Source: Pelotomaculum sp.
GTDB taxonomy: Bacteria > Bacillota > Desulfotomaculia > Desulfotomaculales > Pelotomaculaceae
NCBI GenBank assembly: GCA_018435055.1
Contig: JAHDOA010000056.1
Span: forward strand, 1-37,038
Direction: 5' to 3'
Length of the DNA stretch: 37,038 bases
The notes below the pieces were generated by a model that was not told the DNA's origin, searched no databases, and worked only from the letters and a program-made list of their open reading frames with translations. Shown in pieces: positions 5,575-26,700 of the stretch. A program made the position numbers and the translations under genes. Positions within the stretch are counted from its first letter, which is position 1. Every line of letters starts with the position of its first letter.

Positions 5575-6039
5575 ATGGATCTAGAAAAGCTCACTGAAAA
5601 AATTCAGGAAGCAAAGGTTAAATACTGCAGGTTGTTACTAGTTTTAGGCCCTTTTGCTCAGACCAATTCAAAATATTTAAAAGAGGCCAGTAAGACGTTA
5701 TCATATCCTTATATAAATTTTAACCTGGTCCTGGCAGGTAAATTAATGGATATACCTGTCCAGAGAAGATGTTCCCAGCTTGTTAGCCTGTTACCTAACC
5801 TGTTGAAGAGCTATCCGGAAGAGATTCTTTTGGTTGACCATATTGAGATTTTGTTCTTGCCGGAATTGAGAATTGATCCCTTGAGAGCCCTTCAGCAAAT
5901 AAGCCGTAATAAAACGATCGTAGCCGGTTGGACCGGATTTTATGAGGGTAATAAACTGACTTATGCCAGCCTGGGCCACCCGGAATACAAACGATATCAA
6001 GGCATTGTGGAAGAAGATTTTGCGTTTTTTAATATATAA
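5575..6039 (+). CDS. brxF: BrxF, BREX type 3 P-loop-like protein
   Basis: First gene of the BREX-3 operon. The 154-aa length, the N-terminal strand CRLLLVLGPFAQTNSKYL in place of a canonical Walker A, the central YINFNLVLAGKLMDIP and the Walker-B-like EEILLVDHIEILFLPEL fit BrxF, a small P-loop NTPase-like protein specific to type 3 BREX. The canonical GK[ST] is absent (GPFAQTNSK), so nucleotide hydrolysis is doubtful. The ATG follows GAGAGG at a workable spacing. It ends 6 bp before brxC, with all later BREX genes in the same direction. The family name rests on sequence style plus the diagnostic gene order. Confidence 0.85.
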   Translation: MDLEKLTEKIQEAKVKYCRLLLVLGPFAQTNSKYLKEASKTLSYPYINFNLVLAGKLMDIPVQRRCSQLVSLLPNLLKSYPEEILLVDHIEILFLPELRIDPLRALQQISRNKTIVAGWTGFYEGNKLTYASLGHPEYKRYQGIVEEDFAFFNI

Positions 6040-6045
6040 AAGGGG

Positions 6046-9000
6046 ATGGGGAGTTTGAAGTACGGGGATTTAGTGCAATTTGAACCGATTGATACTGTGG
6101 TGCAGGTCATGGAGGCCAATGACTATACCGAGGCCCAGCGGTTGGTGAAGACGTTTGTTATCTCTGACAGAATGGCTGAAAAGATTAGAGACATTGTCAT
6201 CCCTCACCTACAGATTGATGAGCAGAAGGATAATAAAGCTCTTCTCATTGTAGGGAACTATGGCACCGGTAAGTCCCACTTGATGTCGGTCATTTCCGCG
6301 CTGGCAGAGCATGCTGAGACGCTTACTCTGGTCCAGCATGCCGATGTCAAAAAGATATCCAGTGATATTGCCGGCAAGTTCAAGGTTTTACGTACAGAAA
6401 TCGGTGCTTCCACCATGCCTTTGCGGGAAATCATTTGCCAGGTAATTACGGATTACCTGGAAACTATCGGGGTGGATTACACCTTTCCGCCGCTGGACCA
6501 GGTAACGAACAATAAAGACTGCCTGCTGGAAATGATGGAGCAGTTTGAACAACAGTACCCGGAACATGGCTTCCTGGTAGTGGTGGACGAGCTCCTGGAC
6601 TACTTGCGCACTAGAAAAGAGCAGGAAATTATCCTGGATCTCAATTTCCTGCGTGAAATCGGTGAAATCTGCAAGTCCACCCGCTTCCGTTTTATGGCCG
6701 GTGTCCAGGAGTCGCTTTTTGACAGCGATAAATTTCAATTCGTCGCCGATACCTTGCGCAGGGTGAAGGACCGTTTTGAGCAGCTGCGCATCGCCCGGGA
6801 AGATGTCGCTTATGTGGTAGCCAACCGGTTATTGAAAAAGGACGGCCACCAGAAGGCGTTAGTCCGCGCCCACCTCGAAAAATTCTATCCACTGTACGAA
6901 AATATGGCCGAGCGCTCGGAGCAGTTTGTCACTCTTTTCCCGGTTCATCCTGTTTACTTGGATGTATTTGAAAAGGTCTATGTGGCGGAAAAAAGAGAAG
7001 TGTTGAAAACCATCAGCACCTCGATTGGGAATCTGATCAATAACGAAGTGCCGGATGATGAACCGGGGCTTCTTTCCTTTGATTCTTACTGGGAATATAT
7101 TCTGGAAAACCCGGCTTTGAGAAGCATGCCGGACGTCCGTATTGTTGTGGAAAAAAGCCAGCGGCTGGAGGGTATTATCAATACCTCATTCACAATTCCC
7201 CTGTACAAGCCGGCAGCCTTGAAGATTATCCGGGCCTTGAGCGTGCACAGGCTGACCACCGGGGATATCAACGCGCCCATCGGGTTAGCTGCCGGCGCCT
7301 TGCGGGACGGCCTCTGCCTACACCTGCCCATGCCGGAAGAAGATGCGGAGTTTCTCAAAACAACGATTGAAACCGTTTTAAAGGAAATAAGGAAAACCGT
7401 CAGCGGGCAGTTTATTTCCTTTAACAAGGAAAATGAGCAGTATTACCTGGACCCCCAGCGGGACATCGACTATGATTCGGAAATAGAAAAAAGGGCCGAC
7501 CAGCTCTCTGACGACACCTTAAACCGCTATTATTTTAATGTGCTGACCCAGCTCCTGGACCGGGGTGAATCAATGATCACCGGCCATAAAGTCTGGGAGT
7601 ATGAGATAGAGTGGAAGGAAAAGAAAACGTCCCGGTTGGGCTGGCTGTTTTTCGGAGCGCCCAATGAACGATCAACTGCCCAGCCGCCGCGGGACTTTTA
7701 CCTCTATTTCCTGAAGCCCTTTGGCGATAATGACTTTGAAGATGAGAAAAAGGAAGACGAAGTATTCTTTGCTTTTAAGAAAAGAGACGATAAATTCACC
7801 ATTCCATTGAAACTTTATGCCGCCGCAGTGGAGATGTCTCTTATTTCCCAGGGGGACAGTAAGAAAAGCTATAATGAAAAAGCGGTCACGCACCGCAAGG
7901 AAGTTGTTAAATGGGTTAACAGCAATCTAACCTCGGCTTACGAAGTGACCTACAAGGGAGTCAGCCATAAGTTTGTAGCACTGATTAAAGGGGCAGGCTC
8001 CGGTAAAGATACCAAGGAACTGGTTAATACCGCGGCTTCCAACCTGCTGTCCACCTACTTCAATGAGCAGACGCCGGATTACCCGACCTTTTCGGTGCAG
8101 GTTACCACCAAGAACCGGGACCAGTATGCCCAGGACGCCATTCGCTGGATAGCCACCAACATTAAGACGGATATCGGAGCCAAGATTTTAGATTCCCTGG
8201 AGTTACTGGAAGGGAACAGCCTGCGGCCGTCCAATTCCCGCTACGCTAAATTTATCCTGGACGAATTGAAGAAAAAAGGCGCCGGCCAGGTGGTCAACAG
8301 AAATGAGCTAATCCGGTCCATTGACACCATTGATTATGCCGTGAAATACAGGCTGGAGCCGGAATGGGTGGCGGTCATCCTGGCAGCCCTGGTTTATGAC
8401 GGAGCTGTCACCCTGGCCCTGCACGGTGGTAAATATGATGCTTCAAATCTGGAAGACCTGGCCAAAAGGCCCGTTAAGGACATTGCTGATTTCAAACATA
8501 TAGAGCCACCGAAGGATTTGCCGCTACCCGAGTTAAAGGCGATCTTTGAATTCTTGAGGCTGCCTCCGGGACAAATTGTCAATCCTGCCACCAGGGAAGA
8601 TGCGGTGAACAATATGCAGAAGGAAGTTTTGACTCTGGTTGAAGAGGCGGCTACCCTGCAGCCGCAGATTAGCAATGGCATCCAAAGCTTTGGGGTCAGT
8701 TTCTTGACCGAACCAGAAAAAGAGCAGGCCAAAAAAAAGCTGGACAGCTATAAGAGCTTCCTGGAGTCCCTGCAGGTCTATAAAACGCCGGCCAAACTAA
8801 AGAATTTCCGCTATACTTTCAAGGAGATCAAAGAGCAGCAGGAAGCAAAGGCTATTGTGGCCAGGCTGAAAGAATTGCTGGACTTAAAGAAAGAAACCGA
8901 CCTTCTTTCGGCCTGCATTAACCAGGCTGAGCTGGCCATGCCCTCTGATCATCCGTGGGTAAAGGAAGTGCAAACTAAGCGCCGGGAATTAACCGCGCTG

Positions 9001-9726
9001 GTCACCGGCAACAGGGTTGACGGCAGCATTAAGAAGGATATTTTAGCCCAACTGAAAAGTCTAAAGGACGGGTATGTCGCAGAATATATGAAGCTGCACA
9101 AGCAGCTGCGGCTGGATGTCCAAGACGATACTAAAAAGAAAAAATTGCTCCAACATGATAATTTGAAGAAGTTAAATAAACTTAAAGATATCGAATTAAT
9201 GCCAAAGGGGCAGCTGCAGGAGTGGACTGAGGAACTGGGCAAGCTGAAGCCTTGTTACAATCTGGTTAAAGAAGACCTGGACAGCACTCCTATATGCCCG
9301 CACTGTTCCTTTAACCCCGTCAAAGAGATGGACAACAAACCGGTTTACGGCAGGGTGGAACTGCTGGAAGAAGCTCTTGAGCAAATGATCTCCCAGTGGA
9401 CGGAAACTTTGCTGGGGAACCTGGAGGACCCCATTGTTTCCAGTAATATTGCCCTTATTACCAGGGAGAGCGCTAGAGCAAGGGTGCAGGAGTTTATTAA
9501 CAAACGGGGGTTGCCGGACGACCTAGACAGTGAATTCATCAATGCCGTGCGGGAGGTATTGAGCGGGCTTGTTAAAATGAACGTCACTTTGGATGGAGTG
9601 AAAGCAGCCCTGCTGACCGGCGGCAGTCCCTGTACCGTGGAGGAGTTAAAGAACCGGTTTGACAAATTTGTGGATCAGACGGTTAAAGGAAAAGAGATTT
9701 CTAAAGTTAGAATTATATTAGAATAA
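6046..9726 (+). CDS. brxC: BrxC, BREX large AAA+-like ATPase (DUF6079-type)
   Basis: A 1226-aa P-loop ATPase, the size expected for BrxC, thought to act as the ATP-driven core of BREX anti-phage complexes. Seen: Walker A GNYGTGKSH at about residues 69-77, Walker B LVVVDELLDYL at about 176-186, a predicted coiled-coil-rich C-terminal third, and a CPHC zinc-knuckle half near residue 1084 (IC-P-HCSFNP). The start is ambiguous. The ATG at 6046 directly abuts AGGGG, whereas an in-frame TTG at 6055 would sit about 9 nt after it; the difference is three residues. Immediately downstream of brxF and 19 bp before pglXI, clearly co-transcribed. No lesion seen. Confidence 0.92.
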   Translation: MGSLKYGDLVQFEPIDTVVQVMEANDYTEAQRLVKTFVISDRMAEKIRDIVIPHLQIDEQKDNKALLIVGNYGTGKSHLMSVISALAEHAETLTLVQHADVKKISSDIAGKFKVLRTEIGASTMPLREIICQVITDYLETIGVDYTFPPLDQVTNNKDCLLEMMEQFEQQYPEHGFLVVVDELLDYLRTRKEQEIILDLNFLREIGEICKSTRFRFMAGVQESLFDSDKFQFVADTLRRVKDRFEQLRIAREDVAYVVANRLLKKDGHQKALVRAHLEKFYPLYENMAERSEQFVTLFPVHPVYLDVFEKVYVAEKREVLKTISTSIGNLINNEVPDDEPGLLSFDSYWEYILENPALRSMPDVRIVVEKSQRLEGIINTSFTIPLYKPAALKIIRALSVHRLTTGDINAPIGLAAGALRDGLCLHLPMPEEDAEFLKTTIETVLKEIRKTVSGQFISFNKENEQYYLDPQRDIDYDSEIEKRADQLSDDTLNRYYFNVLTQLLDRGESMITGHKVWEYEIEWKEKKTSRLGWLFFGAPNERSTAQPPRDFYLYFLKPFGDNDFEDEKKEDEVFFAFKKRDDKFTIPLKLYAAAVEMSLISQGDSKKSYNEKAVTHRKEVVKWVNSNLTSAYEVTYKGVSHKFVALIKGAGSGKDTKELVNTAASNLLSTYFNEQTPDYPTFSVQVTTKNRDQYAQDAIRWIATNIKTDIGAKILDSLELLEGNSLRPSNSRYAKFILDELKKKGAGQVVNRNELIRSIDTIDYAVKYRLEPEWVAVILAALVYDGAVTLALHGGKYDASNLEDLAKRPVKDIADFKHIEPPKDLPLPELKAIFEFLRLPPGQIVNPATREDAVNNMQKEVLTLVEEAATLQPQISNGIQSFGVSFLTEPEKEQAKKKLDSYKSFLESLQVYKTPAKLKNFRYTFKEIKEQQEAKAIVARLKELLDLKKETDLLSACINQAELAMPSDHPWVKEVQTKRRELTALVTGNRVDGSIKKDILAQLKSLKDGYVAEYMKLHKQLRLDVQDDTKKKKLLQHDNLKKLNKLKDIELMPKGQLQEWTEELGKLKPCYNLVKEDLDSTPICPHCSFNPVKEMDNKPVYGRVELLEEALEQMISQWTETLLGNLEDPIVSSNIALITRESARARVQEFINKRGLPDDLDSEFINAVREVLSGLVKMNVTLDGVKAALLTGGSPCTVEELKNRFDKFVDQTVKGKEISKVRIILE

Positions 9727-12331: not shown

Positions 12332-12775
12332 TTGAATAATAATTCCGGCGGTTACGTTATAACCGCGGATATCTCATCAATAAAGAATATAGTATGTGAC
12401 GAGGTATGGCAGATAACCCGTTCAAGTAAAAATATTAGTGGGGCAATATGGATGCATGCCCTGGCACCCAGCCCCGGCTTGTATAACAGGTTTTTAAATG
12501 AGTGGAAGGATAAGCCGGGTGAAGAATGGTGGCATATATATAAAGAGCTCTTTGAACAAGAGCTAAAAACGCAAATTAAACTTGATGCGTTAAGAAGACT
12601 GCAAAGTCTGGTTAAGTCAGGAAAAGTTATTGCGTTAGTCTGTTTTTGCGGGGACAGCAGATACTGCCACAGAACGTTAGTAGGGGATTCTTTAAAACAT
12701 AACGGGATAAGAGTGGATGAATTCATTAAAGAAAAATCAAAAAACAATGATGTAGAGCAGTTAACATTATTTTAA
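12332..12775 (+). CDS. DUF488-family protein (N3-like subclade)
   Basis: A 147-aa protein starting at TTG with a GGGAG ribosome binding site. The HALAPSPGLYNRFLNEW segment, the WWHIYKELFEQEL helix and the terminal CFCGDSRYCHRTLVGDSL match the pattern of DUF488 proteins of the COG3189 type (LAPS..LR...W, then Y..EL, then C/A..D...CH..LL). The CHR motif is shared with the next gene, so the two are distant paralogues in tandem. DUF488 biochemistry is unsettled; the conserved Cys-His-Arg suggests an enzyme or nucleic-acid-related role. Codon use is AT-rich, unlike the adjoining brxHII and like the middle of pglXI. Not part of the core BREX-3 set. Confidence 0.75.
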   Translation: MNNNSGGYVITADISSIKNIVCDEVWQITRSSKNISGAIWMHALAPSPGLYNRFLNEWKDKPGEEWWHIYKELFEQELKTQIKLDALRRLQSLVKSGKVIALVCFCGDSRYCHRTLVGDSLKHNGIRVDEFIKEKSKNNDVEQLTLF

Positions 12776-12789
12776 CGGAGGGAATAAGA

Positions 12790-13227
12790 TTGATCATAAT
12801 CTATACTATTGGTTTTTCGAAAAAGAATTTAAAACAGTTCATTACAAGATTAAAAGAAGCAGGTGTAAAAAAGTTGATAGATGTGCGTCTTAATAACACC
12901 TCGCAATTGGCTGGTTACGCTAAAAAAGATGATCTGAAGTATGTCCTCGACTTAATCGGTATCGGTTATGAACATCATTCGGAATTGGCACCGACCGAAG
13001 AATTACTAAAGAAATATAAGAAGAAACAAATAACCTGGCAAGATTACGAAAAAGAGTATAACAACATATTACTTCAAAGAGATCCATTAAAGAGTATAGA
13101 TTTCGGAAAGCAAGAAGGCCCTTATTGTTTGCTATGCTCCGAAGATAAACCGGAGAAGTGCCACAGGAGGCTATTGGCCGAATATTATTGCAATAATTTA
13201 CCGGAAGTTGAGATAGGACATTTGTAA
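12790..13227 (+). CDS. DUF488-family protein
   Basis: A classic DUF488 layout in 145 aa: IYTIGFSKKNLKQFITRLK at the N-terminus, the LIDVRLNN-S-LAGYAKKDDLKYVL motif, IGYEHHSELAPTEELLKKYKK, and a C-terminal LLCSEDKPEKCHRRLLAEY. TTG start with CGGAGGGAATAAGA ahead of it, 14 bp after the previous gene and 16 bp before the next, so the three extra genes form a cassette inside the BREX operon. The molecular role of DUF488 is not firmly established. Its appearance in a defence operon beside an OB-fold protein suggests nucleic-acid recognition or modification, which is inference. Confidence 0.85.
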   Translation: MIIIYTIGFSKKNLKQFITRLKEAGVKKLIDVRLNNTSQLAGYAKKDDLKYVLDLIGIGYEHHSELAPTEELLKKYKKKQITWQDYEKEYNNILLQRDPLKSIDFGKQEGPYCLLCSEDKPEKCHRRLLAEYYCNNLPEVEIGHL

Positions 13228-13243
13228 TTTCATATATGGGAGA

Positions 13244-13933
13244 GTGACTGTTTTGCCGGAAATCCGTATGATTTGTCTCGCTAATTCCAGAAAGTCAGGA
13301 GGCAGGTGTATAGCCGGGATTGATTATAATACGGGGGAATGGATCAGGCCGGTAAATGATGGTGGCGGCGAGTTGTCATTAAGGGATATTAATTATGAGG
13401 ATGGAAATACCCCTAAGGTTTTAGATATAATAGATGTTCCGGTTTTAGAATATCAACCGCTATATTATCAACCCGAAAACTGGGTTATCGATTGGAATTA
13501 TTACTGGACTAAAGTTGGTGAGTTGCCAGTTGGAGAACTAACTGATTACTGTGAAAATGAACTTTATATATTTGGAGGATCAAGTGATAGAGTATCTGAA
13601 GAACAAGTAAAATCAATAACAGCTCCCCGATCTTTGATTTTAATTAATGTTAAGGAAATATGTTTAATAAAGACGTGGAATTATAAAAATTTTCCACAAC
13701 TTAGAGCTATATTTGCATATAACGGAAGTAAATACAATTTAGTCGTAACTGATAAATCCCTGGAAGAAAAATTTCTAGATGGGGAAGTAGAGATTGGTCA
13801 ATATCCTTATGTAGGAAACCTATATTTAACCATCAGCCTCGGTGAGAATTTTTATGGTAATCATTATAAATTGCTGGCTTCCGTTATTTGCCTGGATAGA
13901 ACAAAACGAAAAGTATTGAATATCGAACCATAG
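13244..13933 (+). CDS. Dual OB-domain-containing protein
   Basis: A beta-rich 229-aa protein beginning RMICLANSRKSGGRCIAGIDYNTGEWIRPV, the typical opening of the dual OB-fold family (C-LA-S-K-GGRC-AG, then GEW-RP). The second half (LILINVKEICL, NYKNFPQLRAIFAYNG, YNLVVTDKSLE, YPYVGNLYLTISLGENF) fits a second OB-like barrel. OB folds usually bind single-stranded nucleic acid, so a role in substrate recognition for the adjacent DUF488 proteins is plausible but inferred. Start codon uncertain: the GTG at 13244 almost touches GGGAGA, whereas an in-frame TTG at 13253 has that motif about 10 nt upstream. AT-rich like the two genes before it. Confidence 0.8.
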   Translation: MTVLPEIRMICLANSRKSGGRCIAGIDYNTGEWIRPVNDGGGELSLRDINYEDGNTPKVLDIIDVPVLEYQPLYYQPENWVIDWNYYWTKVGELPVGELTDYCENELYIFGGSSDRVSEEQVKSITAPRSLILINVKEICLIKTWNYKNFPQLRAIFAYNGSKYNLVVTDKSLEEKFLDGEVEIGQYPYVGNLYLTISLGENFYGNHYKLLASVICLDRTKRKVLNIEP

Positions 13934-13962: not shown

Positions 13963-16746
13963 ATGAACAAACACTTTGAAGTCGGTCGGTGGGCCTGGAG
14001 TCTGTCACACCAGGCCCCTGCACGCATTATTGAGTATAAAGCAATATGGGGCTTTAAAAACTTTCTGATCTGGCTGCCCCGCGATAACGGTGTTCACCGG
14101 GTGAAGCAGGGGGACTTAATTCCCTTGCAAGAGCGGAAAGAATTCTCCCTGTCCGAATTATTGTACAAGCTTGCCGCCGCCCGCATCAATGATGCCCTGG
14201 CCCAGGGTAACCTGATTGCCCCGGCGGAGGGAAACGTAATCCCGCTGCCACACCAGCTGTATGCCCTGAACCGGGCCATTTCCGGAAAAAAGGTGCGTTA
14301 CCTGCTGGCTGATGAAGTGGGCCTGGGTAAAACTATAGAAGCCGGGTTGATTATCCGCGAGCTGAAGCTGCGGGGTCTGGTCAAAAGAATCCTGGTTGTA
14401 GCCCCCAAGGGGTTAGTCAATCAATGGGTACAGGAGCTGAAATGCCACTTTAATGAGGATTTTCAGCTGCTGATACCTGGCGAATTTACTATTCTGAGCA
14501 GGCTTTACGGGCAGGTCAACATCTGGCGTGAGCATGGCCAGGTGGTGTGCCCCCTGGACGCCATCAAGCCGGTGGAAGCGCGAAAGGGTTGGAGCAAGGA
14601 ACAATTGACACGGTACAATCAGGAGCGGTTTCATAATATAGTCCACGCGGGCTGGGACCTGGTCATAGTGGATGAGGCGCATAAAATGGGGGCCAGCGGG
14701 GAATCCGTAGCCCGTTTTAAGCTGGGCAAAGCCCTGGCTGAGGCTACTCCATATCTGCTGCTGCTCACGGCCACTCCCCACCAGGGGAAAACTGATGGGT
14801 TTTACCGGCTGATGAGCATACTGGATAAGTCTGCGTTCCCTAATGCCAATGCCATTGTAAAAGAACAGGTGGCGCCATATGTGATCCGGACGGAGAAAAG
14901 GGAAACGCTGGATAATGAGGCCAAACCTTTATTTCAGCCCCGGACCACCAGGCTGGTCAAGGTGCGATGGGAGGCCCGCCATGCGGACCAGGCAGAGCTT
15001 TACCAAAGTGTGAGTGATTATGTGCGGTGGGGCTATAACCAGGCCCTGCGGGAAAAGAAAAATTATGTAGGCTTCTTGATGATTTTAATGCAGCGGATGG
15101 TTACAAGCAGCACCAGGGCGATCCGGGAAGCGTTGGGAAAAAGATTGGAAGTATTGGCGCAGCTGCCGGCGGAAGTGAACATGGAAGGTAAGCCGGACGT
15201 AGATTTTTGGGATTTGGACAGTCAGGAACTGCTGGAAGAGATTCTTGGCAAGAGTTTGCAAGGTTTGAAAGACGAACGGGCGGAAGTGGAAATGCTGCTG
15301 GCCCTGGCCCGGCAGTGCAAATTAAGCTATGCAGACGCTAAAGCGGAAAAGCTGCTGGACATTATTCACCAGGTACAGCTGCAGGAGAACGATGAAACAG
15401 TAAAAGTCTTAATATTTACGGAGTTTGTGGCAACTCAAAGCATGCTGGCAGGCTATCTTAGAGAAAAAGGATATCCAGTGGCAGTTCTGAATGGTTCGAT
15501 GTCCCTGGAAGAAAGGCAGGAAGCACAAGAGGCCTTTGCGGGGCCTTGCCAGGTACTTGTTTCGACGGATGCCGGCAGTGAGGGGTTGAACTTGCAGTTC
15601 TGCCATGTGGTGGTCAACTATGATTTGCCCTGGAATCCCATGCGCCTGGAACAGCGCATCGGCAGGGTTGACCGGATTGGACAAAAGCACCTTGTAAGGG
15701 TTTTTAATTTTATCCTGGCTGAAACGGTGGAATACCGGGTGCGGGAAGTCATTGAGGACAAGTTAAAAATCATTTTAGATGAGTTCGGCGTTGACAAGTT
15801 TGGCGATATTCTGGATTCTGGCCAGTCGGAGGTTGATTTTACTCAGGCTTATGTAGCCACAATTATCAAGCCGGAACACCTCGAGCAGGAAGCTGACGCC
15901 CTGGCCCGGGAAGTTAGGGAAAAGGCGGACCATTTATATCAAGTCAGGGAAATTATCAGAGACAAAAAAGAGCTGGACCTGGAATTGGTCAGCCGGTTAA
16001 AGGGTTTACCCCTGGGGCAATGGCTCAAGACTATGACTGTCAATTATCTGCTTGCTAAGGGTGGAGCGGTAAAACCCAAGTTAACCGGGTTTGACCTGAT
16101 CTGGCCTGATGGGTTTGTTGATCAAGATATTTCCTTTGGTGACCAAAAAGTTTTAACCCCTGGTAAAGTGCTGACCCTGCAGGAGGAAAGGATAGCCGGT
16201 ATTCTGAAATTAAACCATATCTTTGTTCCCGGTGAGCCGGCGCCGGTTTTACGGCTGAAGGGGTTGCCTGACGGACTCAGCGGCTATTGGGCACTATGGA
16301 GGATTGGTTTGAATTGTACCGGGCGGAAGATTGAAAGAATGCTGCCAGCTTTTCTGTCCGAAGAAGGCAAGCTCTATTTGCCGACAGCCAGGTTTATCTG
16401 GGAGCGGTTGCTTGATGAGGGGCAGGACATCGTTTTTACAGGCTTTAAGGAGTGTTGCGATGTCCTCCAGGTCCTGGAAGAAAAGGTGCAACAGCAGGGT
16501 TACAGCCTGTTTAAAGAAATGGAGCAGTTACACCAGGAGATAATCAAGCGGGAAAAGGAAAAAGGAGATCTGGCCTTCCGTTTGCGCAGGGAGGCTATAG
16601 CCCAGGTGGGTTTAAAAGGAGTCAGGGAATACCGTTTGAAGCAACTGGACCAGGAGGAGCAAGCCTGGAGAGAGCGGATCAATCAGGAGGAAAGCTTTTT
16701 TCCTGAATTAACACCTGTTTGTCTGGTTTTTGTGGAGGGCTGTTAA
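13963..16746 (+). CDS. brxHII: BrxHII, BREX type 3 SNF2-family helicase
   Basis: A 927-aa SWI2/SNF2-type SF2 ATPase, the helicase of BREX type 3. Motifs in order: LPHQLYALNRAI (Q-like region), Walker A ADEVGLGKTIEAGLI (about residues 115-129), VDEAHKMG (motif II, about 236), LLTATPHQGK (motif III, about 267), VLIFTEFVATQ (IV), ...STDAGSEGLNLQF (V), and QRIGRVDRIGQ (VI, about 563). Long charged C-terminal extension. It ends at a TAA directly followed by the pglZ ATG, indicating translational coupling. Composition returns to GC-rich here, unlike the AT-rich cassette upstream. Confidence 0.92.
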   Translation: MNKHFEVGRWAWSLSHQAPARIIEYKAIWGFKNFLIWLPRDNGVHRVKQGDLIPLQERKEFSLSELLYKLAAARINDALAQGNLIAPAEGNVIPLPHQLYALNRAISGKKVRYLLADEVGLGKTIEAGLIIRELKLRGLVKRILVVAPKGLVNQWVQELKCHFNEDFQLLIPGEFTILSRLYGQVNIWREHGQVVCPLDAIKPVEARKGWSKEQLTRYNQERFHNIVHAGWDLVIVDEAHKMGASGESVARFKLGKALAEATPYLLLLTATPHQGKTDGFYRLMSILDKSAFPNANAIVKEQVAPYVIRTEKRETLDNEAKPLFQPRTTRLVKVRWEARHADQAELYQSVSDYVRWGYNQALREKKNYVGFLMILMQRMVTSSTRAIREALGKRLEVLAQLPAEVNMEGKPDVDFWDLDSQELLEEILGKSLQGLKDERAEVEMLLALARQCKLSYADAKAEKLLDIIHQVQLQENDETVKVLIFTEFVATQSMLAGYLREKGYPVAVLNGSMSLEERQEAQEAFAGPCQVLVSTDAGSEGLNLQFCHVVVNYDLPWNPMRLEQRIGRVDRIGQKHLVRVFNFILAETVEYRVREVIEDKLKIILDEFGVDKFGDILDSGQSEVDFTQAYVATIIKPEHLEQEADALAREVREKADHLYQVREIIRDKKELDLELVSRLKGLPLGQWLKTMTVNYLLAKGGAVKPKLTGFDLIWPDGFVDQDISFGDQKVLTPGKVLTLQEERIAGILKLNHIFVPGEPAPVLRLKGLPDGLSGYWALWRIGLNCTGRKIERMLPAFLSEEGKLYLPTARFIWERLLDEGQDIVFTGFKECCDVLQVLEEKVQQQGYSLFKEMEQLHQEIIKREKEKGDLAFRLRREAIAQVGLKGVREYRLKQLDQEEQAWRERINQEESFFPELTPVCLVFVEGC

Positions 16747-18684
16747 ATGCTGTGGCCGCAAAAGGTATTGGAAAAATTCAATCTGGAAATGCACAGGCTG
16801 ATCCTGGTAGCGGACCCGGACGGCATTCTAAAAGAAGAAAGTATCCTAAGTTACGTGAGCAGCCAGGGTTTTGAAATCCTCGAATATAATGATCCGGTTG
16901 CATTTCGATATGTCTATGAAGCTGAATTTAGGGAACAAAAAAGCCGCAAGCTGCTTATACAGGTGATGGGTAAAAATTTGAAAGTTTTGCCCTTTGATGT
17001 TTTAAATATGGGAGTATCCATCTCTTTAAGCCTGGCGGACTTTTTCCCCAAGTTTAGCTACCCGGTATTGAAGCAGCTGGAGCCGGGGGTTATTGGTCGG
17101 CTATACCAGGCCTACACTGAATATGACGGTGGCATGCTGGGAGACCAGGGTACCAGGGAATTTGTATTGCAGCATATTTACGAGCTGGTGCCGGGATTTA
17201 TAAAGAATAAAGTTCAGTTTCTTAAGCTTTTAATAGCACTGCATTACAGGAATGTACAGTTGCCCGACGATTTGATCGATTTTATCACAGGAAAATTGCG
17301 GGGTAAGGATTTCTTTGAACTATTACATGGTGACAGGCTATTAGCCAGCCGGAAGGAATTTTGGAGTTTTCTGTATGATCAATGGAAATTGTTTATCCAG
17401 GATAAGCTGGAGGGCGCCAATATCTCCTTAGTGCCTTTTGAGCACGAAGATATTAAAGTATATATTGACAACCTTTTTATCGAAGGGATCTTGAGCTCCA
17501 TTGACGTTATTGCCGGGGCTGACAGGCTGCCGGATTGGGCTAAGGTGGGTGTTAAAGGTTATGAAGCAGCCCAACGGGAACAGAGATTATTACTGCTGCT
17601 GGAAAAATTTGAAGAGTTATTGAGTCAGGAAAACCTTTCCTACCAACACTGGCTGAAGCAGGCGCCGGTGCTGGCAGAGGCCAAAATTATTTTTTATGAC
17701 CCGCAGGGTAATTTATCGGATGAAGTGACAACCAGGTTCAACAGTGTTTATAGACAAGTGGATGCACTTTTCAAGGAATGGCTGTTATATAAATATGGCA
17801 CTCTGAGCAATTTGGCCTATACGAAGAAACCGGTGATGGTCCACCATATCCCCAGATATTTAAGCTATCAGGGTAGAAAGCAAGGCTGGCGAAGGTTGGC
17901 GCTGCTGATACTCGACGGCCTGGCCTGGGACCAGTGGATCCTGGTAAAAAAGCAGTTGCTGCAGGAAAGAGATTATAAGATGGAAGAAGATTCGGCCTTT
18001 GCCTGGGTGCCAACCATGACCTCTGTATCACGCCAGGCGATTTTTGCCGGAGAACCACCCAGGTATTTTAAAGATTCATTATTTACCACCAGCAAGGAAG
18101 AACAACTTTGGAGACGTTTTTGGGAGAATGAAGGCTATAAAGCTTTTAATATTAATTTAGTCAAAGGGCTGGGTGATGGTAAAATTGAAGAGATATTACC
18201 TGCGCTTGCAAATCCCAAGATCAAGATTTTAGGACTGGTAGTTGATAAGGTGGATAAAATGGTGCATGGCCAGCAACTGGGCACGGAGGGAATGTACCAG
18301 GATATCGAGCTTTGGATGCAGGGCGGTTATTTAAAGTTATTATTGGGAAGCTTGCTGGCCAATGATTTTCAGGTTTTCATCACTTCAGACCACGGGAATG
18401 TGGCTGCTGTTGGCCAGGGCAAACTGGACCAGGGGGTACTGGTAGATAGTAAAGGCGAAAGATTTAGGACCTACCAAAAGCAGGCGTTTTTAAAGGAAGC
18501 CAAGGAGAAGACTAAATCCATCGAATGGCCTAAATACGGCCTGCCCGATGATATCCACATTTTATTGGCGGAAGAAACAACTGCATATGTTACAGAAGGC
18601 AAAAGTATTGTAAGCCACGGCGGCATCAGCATGGAAGAAGTGATTGTGCCGTTTATCAGGCTATGGAAGGAAGAGCAGCTTTGA
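16747..18684 (+). CDS. pglZ: PglZ, BREX alkaline-phosphatase-superfamily protein
   Basis: The signature protein of BREX systems. The C-terminal half carries metallophosphatase-like motifs: LLILDGLAWDQW (about residues 386-397), PTMTSVSRQAIFAG with the nucleophile region (about 420-433), FITSDHGNVAAVG (about 543-555) and SHGGISMEEVIVPFIRL near the end (about 622-638). The 645-aa length suits the type 3 form, with the N-terminal half helical and variable. The ATG follows the brxHII stop with no gap; the upstream GGAGG-like GTGGAGGGCTGTTAA lies inside the brxHII end. No disruption of the metal-binding residues is visible. Confidence 0.92.
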   Translation: MLWPQKVLEKFNLEMHRLILVADPDGILKEESILSYVSSQGFEILEYNDPVAFRYVYEAEFREQKSRKLLIQVMGKNLKVLPFDVLNMGVSISLSLADFFPKFSYPVLKQLEPGVIGRLYQAYTEYDGGMLGDQGTREFVLQHIYELVPGFIKNKVQFLKLLIALHYRNVQLPDDLIDFITGKLRGKDFFELLHGDRLLASRKEFWSFLYDQWKLFIQDKLEGANISLVPFEHEDIKVYIDNLFIEGILSSIDVIAGADRLPDWAKVGVKGYEAAQREQRLLLLLEKFEELLSQENLSYQHWLKQAPVLAEAKIIFYDPQGNLSDEVTTRFNSVYRQVDALFKEWLLYKYGTLSNLAYTKKPVMVHHIPRYLSYQGRKQGWRRLALLILDGLAWDQWILVKKQLLQERDYKMEEDSAFAWVPTMTSVSRQAIFAGEPPRYFKDSLFTTSKEEQLWRRFWENEGYKAFNINLVKGLGDGKIEEILPALANPKIKILGLVVDKVDKMVHGQQLGTEGMYQDIELWMQGGYLKLLLGSLLANDFQVFITSDHGNVAAVGQGKLDQGVLVDSKGERFRTYQKQAFLKEAKEKTKSIEWPKYGLPDDIHILLAEETTAYVTEGKSIVSHGGISMEEVIVPFIRLWKEEQL

Positions 18685-18695
18685 GAAGGATAGGA

Positions 18696-19397
18696 ATGGA
18701 CAAAAAGGTTGAAATAGAGTGGCTTGATTTTTTAGCTTTTAGATTAAAAGAAAACAAAAACTATAATGAATTAAGGAAAGAGCTCGACAACAGGCTTCAG
18801 GATGTAATTAATGGCAGCGAGTCGAGACGCAAATATCTTGATGTTCATATGCGAATATGGGTAACAGTACCTTCGGAACATGAACAGCTTAGGGATAAAG
18901 CGCTGACTTTTTTATCATCAACGACATCACAGGAACGTTTGGCCCTTCACTGGGGATTATGTTTATTGGCATTTGAGCTATTCAAGGATGTATCGAATGT
19001 TATTGGCAAATTATTTAACCTGGATGACAAAATTACTCTTGCCCAGGTACATAACCGTATCATTGAAACTTGGGGCGACCGGACGACATTAATTTATGCT
19101 GTGCAGCGAATGTTAAGGTCAATGGCAAAATGGGGTGTCTTGAATGAGCCCCAAAAAAAGAAAGGTTTTTATGTGCCGGCAGAAAAAATTCAATTATTCG
19201 ATAAAGAGTTAAAGCTTTGGCTGCTTGAATGCTATCTTACTTGTTTAGATAAAAAATCTGTTTCTTTACAAAGCTTAAACGAAGTTCCCGTACTGTTCCC
19301 ATTTGATATGGTTGTAAAGCTAGGTGATTTAGTGGCCTCGGATAGGTTTGAGGTAAACCGTCAGGGGCTGGATGTTGATATGGTGGAATTAAGGTAG
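18696..19397 (+). CDS. brxA: BrxA-like (DUF1819-type) BREX protein
   Basis: Last gene of the operon, in the position of brxA in type 3 BREX. The chosen ATG at 18696 lies 5 nt after AAGGA (GAGAAGGATAGGA) and 11 bp after pglZ. An upstream in-frame ATG at 18663 would overlap pglZ by 22 bp and lacks a site. The 233-aa product is helical with a LLAFELFKDVSNVIGKLF helix and a TTLIYAVQRMLRSMAKWGVL segment; these fit the helical/winged-helix BrxA fold, which is known to bind DNA. Identity by motif is weaker than for its neighbours and leans on gene order. A terminator follows about 100 bp downstream. Confidence 0.75.
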   Translation: MDKKVEIEWLDFLAFRLKENKNYNELRKELDNRLQDVINGSESRRKYLDVHMRIWVTVPSEHEQLRDKALTFLSSTTSQERLALHWGLCLLAFELFKDVSNVIGKLFNLDDKITLAQVHNRIIETWGDRTTLIYAVQRMLRSMAKWGVLNEPQKKKGFYVPAEKIQLFDKELKLWLLECYLTCLDKKSVSLQSLNEVPVLFPFDMVVKLGDLVASDRFEVNRQGLDVDMVELR

Positions 19398-20639: not shown

Positions 20640-23600
20640 GTGATTTACATTAACTTTCTCCTTAAGTCACTAAAAGGAGTATGTGAGAGGTATTCTCTGC
20701 AGGATAAGGTACTGATTGTGCCGGGATATAGCATGGGGCATGAGCTTTGTGAAGCACTGGCCAGGAGTAGCGTAGGTTGGATAAACTTGCGTCCCGAAAC
20801 CACGACAGACCTGGCACACCAGGTAGCCGGTGAGGATCTGGCTGAAAAAGGTATCACTCTACTGACTGGGCAGCTGGCTACAGCAGTTGTGGAAGAGATC
20901 TATCACAACCTGGAAGAACAAAAATCTCTTCTCTACTTCGCTAGGGAAAGTTATTCCCCCGGGTTGGTCAGGGCTATAGCTTCTTCTATATATGAGCTGA
21001 GGTACTGTGGGGTTACCAGCGACACTCTTAACATAGACAGTTTTGTCAGCAAAGACAAAGGACAGGATATGGGTGTGTTGTTGAAGGCCTATGAGCAGTA
21101 CCTTACGGACCATAAATTTATTGACACCCCCGGCGTACTCTCATTTGCGCTGGATTTGCTTTCAAGGAGAACCAATGCAGATACAGATACTGTCTATTTG
21201 CTGCCTTCTTTCTTGCTGCTTGGCCCGCTGGAACGCCGGTTAATTGAATTGCTTTCCACTGGAAGGCTTATAATTTTAGCTGCTGATCCGGTTTATGGGT
21301 TATCTAGTCCAGGAATGGAGCCACAGGTACCTGTGCCGGAAAACGCCGTTTCATATACCGAAGTGGACCGTCTGCCCTGGCTGTATCAGGTTGACCAGTC
21401 GCCGGAGCCGGTTGGAGACGGTTCGTTGAACGTCTTTCATGCCTACGGGTTGATGAATGAGGTCAAGGAAATTTTCAGGCGGATTATGAAAGAAGGGATA
21501 TCTTTAGACAGCACGGTGGTTGCCTACACAAGCAGTGAATACATACCTGTCTTTTTTTCACTGGCCAGGCGGCTGGGGTTAAATTTAACGTATGGGGAAG
21601 GAATCCCCGTTACCCTGACGAGCCCTGGCAGGGTTCTGAAGGGCCTAATTGAATGGATCAGGTCTGACTACTCCGTCAGTATGTTAAAAACCCTGGTTTT
21701 AAGTGGTGATGTGGTGCTGCAGGGGGATAAAAAGGGAAGTGCCATTCTGACGCCGGCCGCAGCGGCACGGATGTTGAGCGTTTCCGGCATCGGCTGGGGG
21801 AGGGACCGTTATACCCTGCTGGAACGGATGGCCGAAACTTTTAAGGAAAAAGCTGCGGAAGAACTATCAGAGGAAGATGATGCGGACAGCAGGCGTGAGC
21901 GGTATTTGCGCCAGGGCGAGCTGGCTGAAGGGATATACGTTGTGATAAGCGGGTTAATCTCAAACCTGCCGGCGCCGGATGATGAGGGGAAAATCAGTTT
22001 CAGGGAGCTTACCGCTGGCCTCTCATACATCCTGCCAAAAATAACTAATACTATAAGCAGTATTGACGCCGCCGCACTGCAAGGGTTAATCAACAACCTG
22101 GTCCAGGCCGGGCAGTTTGCGTCTTTTAACCTGGAAATCGAAGAAGCTCTGGAGCGGGTGGAAAACATCCTTGAAGTTTTTCGGGTCGGGGCGTCTGGTC
22201 CCAAGCCCGGTCACCTGCACATTGTCAGTTACCAGAATTTAATCTGGTCATGCCGTCCTCACACCTTTATTGCCGGGTTGGGCGCAGACACATTTCCGGG
22301 CGGCGTCCGCCAGGATCCGGTCCTGTTGGATACTGAGCGCAGGAGGATTCATGCCGGGCTGCCGCTGGGCGCGGACAGGCCGGGTGAGAACCAGCAAATG
22401 ATGGCTCTTGTGCTTGCCTCCAGGAGGGGGCGGGTCACTTTAAGCTTTCCTTCCTTTGATGTTGTGGAAAACAGGTCTGTATTCCCTTCAAATATACTGC
22501 TTCAGGCATACCGCCTTTTACAAAAAGACACCTCATTGGATTACACGGACTTTATCAACTCCCTGGGCAAAACGGCGGGGTACTGTCCCCATGAAGGAAA
22601 CCCGGCTCTGGATGAAACAGAGTGGTGGATCGCCCGGGTCCTGACAGGGCCAGGATTGATTAACGGCAATGCGGCTGTAAGGGACTGCTGCCAGGGTATA
22701 GCGTTAGGCAGCAAAGCGCTTGAGGCCAGGCAAAGCCCGGGTCCGACTGAATATGACGGGCTGATTGCCGTTGATAATCAATTTGATCCCCGCCAAAATA
22801 CTGATCTGGTTATGTCCTGTAGCAAGATCGAGGACCTGGCCGGTTGCCCCTTTGCATATTTTCTAAAATACATTTTGCGGGTTCAGCCTCCGGACGAAGT
22901 CAGCTATGACCCAAACTGCTGGCTGGATCCACTGGAGCGGGGCTCTCTGCTGCACGAGTTGTTCTGTAGATTTATGAAAAAACTCTCGGCTGACAACGAA
23001 AGCCCCAGTTTGCCCAGGCATAAGACAATGATGATGGAGATGGCGGATGAGCTCATTGGAGATTACAGCAAGCAAATTCCAGCTCCCAGCGATCTAGTCT
23101 TCCAGCGGGAAAGAATGGATATCTACCGCTGCTGTGAAGTTTTCCTGGCTGCCGAAGGCGCCCACGGGGCAGGCGAGCCCGTGCTGTTTGAGGTTCCTTT
23201 CGGCCTGGGCGGTGAGGCAGTGGCGGTATCCGGCGCCGGCCTGGCGGACCCCATAAAAATTGAGCTGGGCAGTGGCGATGCCTTTTTGCTCAGGGGTAAG
23301 ATAGACAGGGTAGACAGGGCGCGGGAAGGGACTTACCAGGTATGGGACTACAAGACCGGAAGCGCCTATGGTTATGCGGAACACAGGCACTTTTGCGGCG
23401 GGCGCCAGATCCAACATGCCCTGTACGCTGTTGCAGCCGAACAAATAATAAAAGAGCTTTCACCAAAGTCATCTCCGCGGGTGGAGGTCTCCGGGTACTA
23501 TTTCCCCACAGAGCGGGGTGAGGGCCTGAAAATTGCCCGCCCGCAGGCAAACCGCGAAAGATTATCAGAACTTTTAAACCACTTATTTGATCTCCTGGCG

Positions 23601-23765
23601 GGAGGAATATTTATCGCTGCTGACCATGGGGAAAAATGCGGTATCTGTGACTATACCGTTGTTTGCGGCGGGGACAGTGCTGTGAACCGGGTGAAAAAGC
23701 TGCTGGCTGCGCCCGTCAGCAGTGCTTGCCTGGACCCCTGGAGGAGGTTGAAGGAATATGATTAA
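20640..23765 (+). CDS. addB: AddB-like PD-(D/E)XK nuclease with Fe-S cluster (helicase-inactive subunit)
   Basis: A 1041-aa AddB-type partner of the following AddA-like helicase, together resecting DNA ends. The C-terminus has LRGKIDRVDR and WDYKTG (PD-(D/E)XK) plus four cysteines placed like the AddB iron-sulphur staple: one in LAGCPFAYF (about residue 736) and CGICDYTVVC near 1000-1009. The N-terminus (DKVLIVPGYSMGHELCEALAR) has no Walker A GKT, unlike B. subtilis AddB, so this subunit is probably an inactive helicase. Start doubtful: GTG at 20640 sits against GGGG, while an ATT at 20649 is 5 nt after GGGGTGA. It overlaps addA by 8 bp. Could be a defence-type relative rather than housekeeping AddB. 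Confidence 0.8.
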   Translation: MIYINFLLKSLKGVCERYSLQDKVLIVPGYSMGHELCEALARSSVGWINLRPETTTDLAHQVAGEDLAEKGITLLTGQLATAVVEEIYHNLEEQKSLLYFARESYSPGLVRAIASSIYELRYCGVTSDTLNIDSFVSKDKGQDMGVLLKAYEQYLTDHKFIDTPGVLSFALDLLSRRTNADTDTVYLLPSFLLLGPLERRLIELLSTGRLIILAADPVYGLSSPGMEPQVPVPENAVSYTEVDRLPWLYQVDQSPEPVGDGSLNVFHAYGLMNEVKEIFRRIMKEGISLDSTVVAYTSSEYIPVFFSLARRLGLNLTYGEGIPVTLTSPGRVLKGLIEWIRSDYSVSMLKTLVLSGDVVLQGDKKGSAILTPAAAARMLSVSGIGWGRDRYTLLERMAETFKEKAAEELSEEDDADSRRERYLRQGELAEGIYVVISGLISNLPAPDDEGKISFRELTAGLSYILPKITNTISSIDAAALQGLINNLVQAGQFASFNLEIEEALERVENILEVFRVGASGPKPGHLHIVSYQNLIWSCRPHTFIAGLGADTFPGGVRQDPVLLDTERRRIHAGLPLGADRPGENQQMMALVLASRRGRVTLSFPSFDVVENRSVFPSNILLQAYRLLQKDTSLDYTDFINSLGKTAGYCPHEGNPALDETEWWIARVLTGPGLINGNAAVRDCCQGIALGSKALEARQSPGPTEYDGLIAVDNQFDPRQNTDLVMSCSKIEDLAGCPFAYFLKYILRVQPPDEVSYDPNCWLDPLERGSLLHELFCRFMKKLSADNESPSLPRHKTMMMEMADELIGDYSKQIPAPSDLVFQRERMDIYRCCEVFLAAEGAHGAGEPVLFEVPFGLGGEAVAVSGAGLADPIKIELGSGDAFLLRGKIDRVDRAREGTYQVWDYKTGSAYGYAEHRHFCGGRQIQHALYAVAAEQIIKELSPKSSPRVEVSGYYFPTERGEGLKIARPQANRERLSELLNHLFDLLAGGIFIAADHGEKCGICDYTVVCGGDSAVNRVKKLLAAPVSSACLDPWRRLKEYD

Positions 23766-26700
23766 ACAAGTTTTGCCTGACAGTGATTCACGCCGGGCTA
23801 TTGTGGAGAACCTGGATACCTGCCTGCTGGTAGAGGCAGGCGCCGGTTCCGGAAAAACACATAGCCTGGTCGAGCGCATGGTGGCTTTGGTTAAAGACAA
23901 TAAATGTAGCGTTGACAGAATTGCTGCCGTTACTTTCACCAGGAAGGCTGCCGCTGAGCTAAAGGGCAGGTTCCAGTTGGCCCTGGAAAAATCCATAGCC
24001 AGTGAAACCTGTCCGGACAAAAAGGAGAGGCTGAGCCGTGCGCTGAATAATCTGGACCGCTGCTTTTTAGGAACTATACACTCATTCTGTGCAGCTTTAT
24101 TGAGAGAGCGCCCGGTTGAAGCCGGTTTAGAGCCGGACTTTGTAGAAATAGAGGAGCTTGAAGATACGCTGCTGCGCGAGCGGGCCTGGGATGAGTATTT
24201 AACTCTGGTACAGGTGGAGAACCCGCAGGCGCTGGAAGATTTGTTGAAAATCGACGTTAAAGCCCAGGATTTGAAAGAGTTTTACAGGATCTTGTCCGAC
24301 TACCCGGAGGTGGAGGTAGACAGTCATGATTCCCCCGCGCCGGACCTGATGGCTGTACGAGTGGAGTTAGACAAACTGCTGGAATTAGCTGTAACGCTTC
24401 TTCCCGGCAGCGTACCGTTTAAAGGCTGGGATAACCTGCAGTCACTCCTGCGCAGGGCGCTGAGGTGGCGCAGGGTTTTTGGCCTGGATGATGACATTGC
24501 TTTACTGCGTCTGCTGGTAATACTCGATAAACAGGGGTCCGTGACTCAAAACCGCTGGCTTTCAAGTGATGACGCCAAAACAGCGCGGGATGCCTTTAAC
24601 CAGTTTCGGGACGAACATATTATCCCGGTGCTAAAGGCCTGGCGCGAACACAGACATAAGTGCCTGGTCGACTTTGTCCTGCCGGCGGTTGAGCTTTATC
24701 GCAAACGGCGGACGGAGCGCTCCAAGCTGAACTTCCAGGATCTTTTGATGTCCGTTGCCGCCCTGCTAAAAAGCAACCCCGAGGTGCGTGGTTATTTTCA
24801 GGAGAGGTATACACACCTGCTGGTTGATGAGTTCCAGGATACTGACCCGATCCAGGCGGAAATCATGTTTTACCTCACCGGCCAGGACGTATGCGAGCAG
24901 GACTGGCGCAAGCTTATCCCCCGACCGGGAGCGCTTTTTGTAGTGGGAGATCCGAAACAGTCCATTTACCGCTTCCGCCGCGCAGACATCGACACCTATA
25001 ACGAGGTGAAAAAGTTGATAGCCCAGAGCGGCGGCAGGGTGCTGCACTTAACGTCCAATTTCCGTTCAGTGAAGGCCATTGGGGACTGGGTTAACCCGGT
25101 GTTTAAAAACCTTTTGCCCGGATCGGCTACTTCTTTTCAAGCTGCTTTCACTGACCTTGACACTGTGAGAGCAAACGCAGAGGGGAGAGCCGGGGGGATC
25201 AGGACAATCAATATCCCCAAGGTTCACCGGAATTCCCAGAGGGAAATCGCTTTCATCGACGCCGGCCGTATAGCCCGCTGGATAAGGTGGGCTGTCGACG
25301 GCGGGATTACCCTGGACAGGACTGCTGAAGAAATCGAGGCCGGCTTAACTGAAAGGCCCTGGCCGGCTGATTTTTTAATCCTGCTGCGCTATAAATCAAA
25401 TATGGACCTTTACGCCAGGGCTTTAGAAGAGCAGGGCATCCCTTTCCAGTTAGCCGGGGGCGGCGGGTTTTCAGGTTCTGCGGAGATAGCCGAACTGCTG
25501 AAGGTTCTGAAAGCTATTTTAGAGCCGGATAATCCTATATGGTTGGTTTCTGTCCTCAGAGGCGGCCTTTTCGGGCTAAGCGACAACCAGCTGTGGTTAT
25601 TCAAACAGGCGGGCGGGCACTTTAACTTCTACGCCAGTATCCCGGACAGCCTGGAGCAAAAGGAGCGGGAGATTTTTGAGTGGGCGTATGGCAGGTTAAG
25701 AACCTGCCGCAAGTGGGTGCAGGGGCTTCCGGCCAGTGCTGCCCTGGAAAATATCATGCAGGAGCTAGGTGTTATACCCTGCGCTCTAACCGGGGAGCTT
25801 GGCCGCAGCCGCTCCGGACACCTGTTGCAGTGCCTGGAGTTATTCGCCGCAGCCGAGCGCGGAGGGACCACCTCATTTGCATCGCTGGTAGAATCACTTG
25901 AGCTTCTCATAGAAACAGGTGTGGAAGAAGAGATTAATATCGCCCCCTGGGAAAATGACGCCGTAAGGCTGATGAACCTGCACAAGGCCAAAGGGCTTGA
26001 AGCGCCGGTGGTTTTCCTGGCCAACCCCGGAAAAGATGTTGTCTGGGAGCCTTCTGTACATATTAATAGAACTGGCGGTTTGCCGCGCGGCTACTATGTG
26101 ATTAAAAAGAAACAAGGATACACCGAAGAAATACTGGGCCAGCCTTTAAACTGGGATGAGTTAGCCGCTGTAGAGAAACAGTACCTTGAAGCCGAGGAAA
26201 CCCGTTTGCTCTATGTAGCTGCCACCAGGGCAAAAAACCTGTTGGTTATAAGCGTTTACCCGGAAAAGCCGGAAATCAGCCCCTGGAAGCTCTTTGAAGA
26301 ACACATGGAAGGCGTTCCCGCATTGGAGGAGGTTAAGGTCAGCCAGGCTCCAGCGATTGTGGGCGGTGATACGATTACTAAACAAGACCTGATCAAAGCA
26401 AGGGATGGTTTTCTTGGCCCGGGGAGCTCCATTAATGGCCCCAGTTACAGCGTTGCTTCTGTTACCTCCCTGTCAAAAGAGGGGATTGAAGGTCCGGAGA
26501 GGAAAAGTACCGGCCGCGGGCAGTCCTGGGGCAGGGTGATTCACAGAGTACTGGAATCCGTTGTTAAGAAAGTGCCTGCTAACCTGGATCTTTTTGTTGA
26601 GAATGTTATTGCAGAGGAAGATAGGGCGCCGGAGGAAAAAGAGCAGGTCTTAAGTCTGATAAAAAAAATTATGCAGTCAACTATTTGGCAAAGGATGCTG

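What the first reader, a model, noticed from the sequence alone, without database searches (positions are those of the whole stretch)
12332..13933. Three-gene DUF488/DUF488/dual-OB cassette embedded in a BREX-3 operon
Core BREX type 3 genes run brxF-brxC-pglXI-brxHII-pglZ-brxA. Here two divergent DUF488 paralogues, both with a Cys-His-Arg motif, and a dual OB-fold protein are inserted between pglXI and brxHII with gaps of 16-30 bp, all AT-rich against GC-rich brxHII. They could be an embedded accessory defence module or a DNA-modification activity that works with BREX. I do not know of a function for this trio.
Basis: partly seen in the sequence, partly recalled or inferred. Interest (0 to 1): 0.75.

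Follow-up and report, generated by a model that had tools for sequence, protein, structure and literature searches.

The report
Mobile three-gene cassette inside a BREX operon
Three small genes sitting inside a bacterium's BREX anti-phage operon turn out to be a widespread mobile gene cassette, already listed in a defence database as an untested candidate (PDC-M45), that probably pairs two cysteine enzymes with a DNA-binding protein and usually lives without BREX.

Summary
A complete BREX-3 operon (brxF-brxC-pglXI-brxHII-pglZ-brxA) carries three extra genes between pglXI and brxHII: DUF488-N3a, a second DUF488, and a dual-OB protein (DuOB). The DuOB and second DUF488 match PADLOC's unvalidated candidate PDC-M45 (M45A, M45C), so the kind is known although its function is not.

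The trio is a real unit. Of 53 loci with enough flanking sequence, 35 hold all three genes together, across many bacterial phyla and some archaea. It is not a BREX part: only three related loci show a BREX link, all with one closely related version of the cassette. Instead, the slot behind pglXI in BREX-3 is a hotspot: about 7 of 27 loci carry different accessory genes there, as does this genome's own second BREX-3 operon.

New here: DuOB is predicted to be a tandem OB fold and is fused elsewhere to RecQ and PIF1 helicases; the second DUF488 is predicted to have a protein-tyrosine-phosphatase-like fold with an invariant C-x7-C-H-R loop; in enterobacteria the third gene is (mSLOG-)DUF4326; and solo copies sit by UvrA or UvrB in plasmid formaldehyde islands.

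Best reading: a mobile nucleic-acid-end or adduct-processing module, used as embedded defence here. Defence function is untested.

The parts
12332..12775 (+). DUF488-N3a protein (first DUF488), 147 aa, TTG start, motif C104-F-C106-x5-C112-H-R
   Evidence: Pfam PF22751 4.8e-20; invariant C104, C106, C112, H113, R114 in 11 relatives
12790..13227 (+). Second DUF488 (PADLOC PDC-M45C), 145 aa, predicted PTP-like fold, motif C116-x7-C124-H-R126
   Evidence: PDC-M45C 1.3e-51; 36-sequence alignment; AF2 pLDDT 91; PDB fold matches
13244..13933 (+). DuOB protein (PADLOC PDC-M45A), 229 aa, GTG start, two OB folds
   Evidence: PF22557 9.7e-62; PDC-M45A 1e-56; AF2 pLDDT 90; OB-fold matches
5575..6039 (+). 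brxF (host BREX-3 operon)
   Evidence: NF033453 3.6e-41
6046..9726 (+). brxC
   Evidence: PADLOC BrxC; PF19557
9746..12304 (+). pglXI methyltransferase; insertion slot follows its stop codon
   Evidence: PADLOC PglXI
13963..16746 (+). brxHII helicase
   Evidence: PADLOC BrxHI|BrxHII
16747..18684 (+). pglZ
   Evidence: NF033449 BREX_PglZ_3 9.5e-217
18663..19397 (+). brxA
   Evidence: PADLOC BrxA 3.9e-79

Best explanation
The trio is a BREX-embedded copy of the mobile cassette PDC-M45, carried as an independent accessory defence in the cargo slot behind pglXI. Shown: a recurrent three-gene unit, its insertion into BREX-3, and the slot's use for other cargo. Predicted from models: DuOB is a tandem OB-fold protein, and M45C has a PTP-like fold with Cys116 and Arg126 where phosphatases of this fold hold their nucleophile and phosphate-binding arginine. 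Inferred: DuOB binds nucleic acid, probably single-stranded or branched replication or repair intermediates. There it positions the two DUF488 enzymes. Their cysteines attack a phosphate or small adduct on nucleic-acid ends or modified nucleotides, using a covalent cysteine intermediate, with the second cysteine regulating or resolving it. In defence this would act on phage DNA or on nucleotide products made during infection. No step of the chemistry and no antiphage effect has been tested.
For: PADLOC M45A/M45C matches. PDC entries are candidates found by guilt-by-embedding (PMC12988326). All three genes together in 35 of 53 loci with enough flank. Slot hotspot: Mrr-type REase, PDC-S06, PDC-S19, PDC-M34A, OLD/AriA-like and Ppl-like genes in the same position of other BREX-3 loci, and PDC-S06 in this genome's second BREX-3. 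OB and PTP-like predicted folds. Invariant C-x7-C-H-R. DuOB fusions to RecQ and PIF1-HRDC helicases. DUF4326, which fills the place of the other DUF488 in enterobacteria, is placed in the rhodanese-phosphatase superfamily and predicted to act on ribose-linked phosphates (PMC9503650). Copies beside CRISPR III, CBASS and viperin, and in integrase-flanked E. coli islands.
Against: Only 2 of 20 immediate neighbours outside BREX match defence families, and some copies sit among housekeeping or flagellar genes. Profile comparison with true rhodaneses gives no significant similarity. The fold matches are modest (best Z 8.5 for M45C, 7.4 for DuOB). The Cys-Arg spacing is 9 residues, not the 5 of PTP loops. 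Nothing here tests phage protection.
Confidence: 0.42

Rival explanations
1. The cassette is a DNA-damage repair or genome-maintenance module, not an immune one. It handles DNA adducts or blocked ends, such as aldehyde or DNA-protein crosslink products, and rides on mobile elements because it helps them survive stress.
For: DuOB fused to RecQ and PIF1-HRDC helicases. Solo M45C genes lie beside UvrA or UvrB and formaldehyde-response genes on plasmids of E. coli, Aeromonas and Shinella, and form one clade. An SSB gene adjoins one trio. Most neighbours are not defence genes.
Against: The UvrA/UvrB context belongs to one solo clade that has lost the partners. The trio is embedded in BREX-3 in a slot otherwise used for defence cargo, and its distribution is patchy (13 of 398 genomes).
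Confidence: 0.32
2. The trio adds a second DNA modification (for example a sulfur or nucleobase mark) that works together with PglXI methylation.
For: Rhodanese/PTP-like folds can carry sulfur on cysteine (general knowledge); invariant paired cysteines; one neighbour among 95 is a DndA/cysteine-desulfurase-like protein.
Against: Almost all trios have no BREX partner. No conserved sulfur donor, activating ATPase or restriction partner was seen beside the trio.
Confidence: 0.1
3. It is a neutral hitchhiker that landed once in the BREX operon.
For: The BREX-linked copies are closely related, and two of them lie next to broken pglXI.
Against: All three frames are intact in the window with conserved active-site residues, and the two DUF488 frames persist in L018 where pglXI is broken.
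Confidence: 0.08

Closest known systems
PADLOC candidate PDC-M45 (A = DuOB, B and C = DUF488)
   Same: DuOB and the second DUF488 match M45A and M45C strongly; same three-gene make-up
   Different: The first DUF488 is of the N3a clade and matches M45B only weakly (2.3e-4). I found no experimental validation of this candidate
Rhodanese-phosphatase superfamily (PTP/DSP phosphatases, DUF4326 clade)
   Same: Predicted fold of M45C matches PRL-1, laforin and archaeal PTP (Z about 8); Cys at strand end and Arg at helix start
   Different: Loop is C-x9-R with a second Cys-His pair instead of C-x5-R; no significant profile match to rhodanese
Tandem-OB DNA-binding proteins (RPA, telomere end-binding proteins, HIN-200)
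   Same: Two OB folds; Foldseek probability 0.9-0.99 to Teb1, HIN-200 and RPA
   Different: TM-scores 0.2-0.4, about 10% identity; DNA binding not shown
Auxiliary effectors recruited to BREX loci (PMC12839542)
   Same: Extra genes inside BREX core loci
   Different: That survey's main-text section on auxiliary effectors covers nucleases and ATPases; its main text has neither DUF488 nor 'dual OB'

Membership tests
PDC-M45 | M45A (DuOB) match | tested here: met
   1e-56
PDC-M45 | M45C match | tested here: met
   1.3e-51
PDC-M45 | M45B match by the other DUF488 | tested here: inconclusive
   N3a protein hits M45B at only 2.3e-4, and PDC-M19A better at 2.7e-7
PDC-M45 | Demonstrated antiphage activity | not testable with these tools
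   Needs phage assays; PDCs are described as mostly unvalidated
BREX type 3 | brxF, brxC, pglXI, brxHII, pglZ, brxA in one operon | tested here: met
Obligate BREX-3 component | Trio present in most BREX-3 loci | tested here: not met
   Absent behind pglXI in the other BREX-3 loci examined; BREX-linked copies otherwise known only in L018 and L021
Rhodanese-phosphatase superfamily | Alpha/beta PTP/rhodanese-type fold | tested here: inconclusive
   M45C model pLDDT 91; the best-ranked VIA rows are PTP/DSP phosphatases, best Z 8.5 over 101 residues, rmsd 2.5. Supportive, but Z is near the level that common folds reach and Foldseek gave no match below E 0.001
Rhodanese-phosphatase superfamily | C-x5-R catalytic loop | tested here: not met
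   C116-x9-R126; both residues invariant in 36 M45C sequences
Rhodanese-phosphatase superfamily | Sequence-profile similarity to rhodanese | tested here: inconclusive
   hhalign probability 0.7% and 2.7% with small alignments
DuOB (PF22557) | Profile above gathering score | tested here: met
   209 bits vs 27
DUF488-N3a (PF22751) | Profile above gathering score | tested here: met
   72.5 bits vs 27

The most novel reading that the evidence does not exclude
The cassette is a defence of a chemistry not yet described: a tandem-OB protein that loads paired cysteine phosphatase-like enzymes (DUF488/DUF488 or DUF488/DUF4326) onto replication intermediates to remove phosphate or ADP-ribose-type groups from phage or damaged DNA, so linking immunity with DNA repair.
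Probability: 0.12. Interest if true: 0.75.

Novelty: new member of a known kind. Interest (0 to 1): 0.45.

Why it matters
It shows that the position behind pglXI in BREX-3 is a cargo slot, so its other unknown contents are good defence candidates. It also gives an uncharacterised, very widespread cassette a testable biochemistry (invariant cysteines, OB domains, helicase fusions) and natural E. coli versions that can be assayed directly. If confirmed, it would join a family of unknown function (DUF488) to DNA processing in immunity or repair.

Tried and rejected
Papers: no held paper contains both DUF488 and BREX, or DUF488 and 'dual OB', nor 'PDC-M45'. The rhodanese-phosphatase survey that I recall as covering DUF488 is not held, so I did not rely on it. 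Solved structures: no significant sequence relative of any of the three proteins in the PDB. The DuOB alignment was too divergent for a collection scan, so M45C was used. Phage records: no DuOB match. Rhodanese profile comparison not significant; N3a against DUF4326 only 18%, so I claim only a shared motif there. Rejected: 'the trio is BREX machinery'; 'AT content shows recent import' (brxF and brxA are equally AT-rich). Co-occurrence of DuOB and PglXI-like genes in the phylum sample (5 of 12 against 47 of 397, hypergeometric p 0.008) was not pressed: most are at separate loci, defence-rich genomes confound it, and PglXI-like hits may include other methyltransferases.

Full report
What is there. 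The window is one whole contig (G000:C12, 37,038 bases). It holds an intact BREX-3 operon: brxF 5575, brxC 6046, pglXI 9746, brxHII 13963, pglZ 16747, brxA 18663. Between pglXI and brxHII lie three same-strand genes with gaps of 27, 14, 16 and 29 bp. The first is DUF488-N3a (4.8e-20), the second DUF488 (2.1e-27), the third DuOB (9.7e-62). PADLOC already has profiles for this kind of set: the second DUF488 is PDC-M45C (1.3e-51) and DuOB is PDC-M45A (1e-56). The first DUF488 matches M45B only weakly (2.3e-4). PDC entries are candidates from a 'guilt-by-embedding' approach and most are unvalidated (PMC12988326).

It is a unit. A scan of GTDB genomes with the second DUF488 (M45C) matched at least 561 relatives (a lower bound). 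The best 80, kept as loci, span Bacillota, Pseudomonadota, Planctomycetota, Chloroflexota, Cyanobacteriota, Bacteroidota, Actinomycetota and two archaea. Where at least 2 kb on one side and 1.5 kb on the other were available (53 loci), 35 had both another DUF488 and DuOB on the same strand within 4 kb, 10 had DUF488 only, 2 DuOB only and 6 neither. The two common orders are DUF488-M45C-DuOB and DuOB-DUF488-M45C. DuOB is otherwise rare: 13 of 398 genomes of the phylum, so this is far beyond chance.

It is not part of BREX. In the phylum sample PglXI-like proteins occur in 48 of 398 genomes, and the gene after pglXI is normally brxHII or pglZ at 5 to about 190 bp. Besides the window, only two relatives tie the trio to BREX. 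L018 (and L014, the same contig) carries a broken pglXI followed by the cassette at the same junction. L021 has pglXI scraps, the two DUF488 genes, then brxA and brxC of another BREX type. The window, L018 and a solo copy in Desulfotruncus (L017) form one supported clade (98/97), so a single insertion into BREX-3 suffices; L021, whose M45C is frameshifted, was not in that tree but is 76-78% identical.

The slot is a hotspot. Among about 27 BREX-3 loci that could be read past pglXI, about seven have an extra gene there: an Mrr-type type IV restriction enzyme (L104), PDC-S06 (L113), PDC-S19 (L116), PDC-M34A (L124), an OLD/AriA-like ATPase (L114), a Ppl-like protein (L112) and the window's trio. 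This genome's second BREX-3 operon (contig C60, PglXI 50-52% identical) has a 754-aa PDC-S06/PrrC-like protein in exactly that position. This is position-based evidence that the trio is defence cargo.

Other contexts are mixed. On plasmids the trio lies next to CRISPR type III genes (L129), a CBASS locus (L132), and viperin plus an SSB (L157). In E. coli it lies in integrase-flanked islands, with 12 of 5426 genomes matching by DNA, all on the DUF4326 gene. But 18 of 20 immediate neighbours in other loci have no PADLOC match, and some copies sit beside housekeeping or flagellar genes. Solo M45C genes lie next to UvrA or UvrB and formaldehyde-response genes on plasmids, all one clade.

Partners vary. 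The partner slot holds DUF488-N3a (mostly Bacillota), a classical DUF488 (most others), or DUF4326 in Enterobacteria and Acinetobacter. In E. coli the last is an mSLOG-DUF4326 fusion. The M45C genes that travel with DUF4326 form one clade, so one swap suffices. DuOB is fused to a RecQ helicase in L060 and to PIF1-HRDC helicases in L075 and L094.

Structure. The DuOB model (pLDDT 90) is two OB folds; best matches are telomere end-binding protein, RPA, Teb1 and HIN-200 domains, all DNA-binding, at modest Z of 6-7.4. The M45C model (pLDDT 91) matches PTP and dual-specificity phosphatases best (PRL-1 Z 8.5, rmsd 2.5, 101 residues). The invariant Cys116 ends the strand and Arg126 starts the helix, the positions of nucleophile and phosphate-binding arginine in that fold; this is inferred from secondary structure and aligned ranges, not from coordinates. 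All 36 aligned M45C and all intact first-slot DUF488s share C-x7-C-H-R. The two DUF488 kinds are homologous to M45C (hhalign 97.5% and 98.9%), but similarity to rhodanese is not significant. DUF4326 is placed in the rhodanese-phosphatase superfamily in the literature and predicted to process ribose-linked phosphates and to bridge NAD-signalling with DNA modification and restriction (PMC9503650, PMC7824862).

Mechanism. I think most likely that DuOB binds nucleic acid and delivers two cysteine-dependent, phosphatase-like enzymes to it, acting on ends, modified nucleotides or adducts. Fold and conservation are computed; binding, chemistry and defence are inferred. Repair as the main role is nearly as likely and would explain the helicase fusions and UvrA/UvrB neighbours.

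Verdict. Interest is moderate because the function is open but now testable.

Noticed in passing
window 28327-34632: Complete Azaca defence system (ZacA 1.7e-98, ZacB 6.8e-157, ZacC 0) downstream of the BREX-3 operon, so the contig is a defence island.
   Followed up: partly
window 20640-27003: AddB-like and AddA-like helicase-nuclease pair between BREX-3 and Azaca.
   Followed up: no
window 27074-28189: 371-aa protein with a NucS C-terminal nuclease match and a partial PDC-S11 match, right behind the AddAB-like genes.
   Followed up: no
L160 (own genome, contig C60) 4758-7022: The same genome has a second BREX-3 operon with a PDC-S06/PrrC-like ATPase in the identical slot behind pglXI.
   Followed up: yes
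L131, L158, L159: Solo M45C-type DUF488 genes in plasmid formaldehyde-response islands, next to UvrA (L131), UvrB (L159) or near a DksA-like and a RarA-like gene (L158).
   Followed up: partly
L060 6193-9345; L075 9744-12881; L094 2407-5502: DuOB fused to RecQ (L060) and to PIF1-HRDC helicases (L075, L094).
   Followed up: partly
L153, L154, L155: E. coli chromosomal islands at ffs, icd and near ybaA carry DuOB-DUF488-(mSLOG)DUF4326; McrA or an HNH nuclease lies nearby in two.
   Followed up: partly
L067 8604-11338: A locus with two DuOB genes flanking the DUF488 pair.
   Followed up: no
L030, L034, L035, L036, L064: Long DuOB proteins (420-614 aa) in Clostridia MAGs; in the one scanned (L035, 614 aa) the extra part has no Pfam match.
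   Followed up: no
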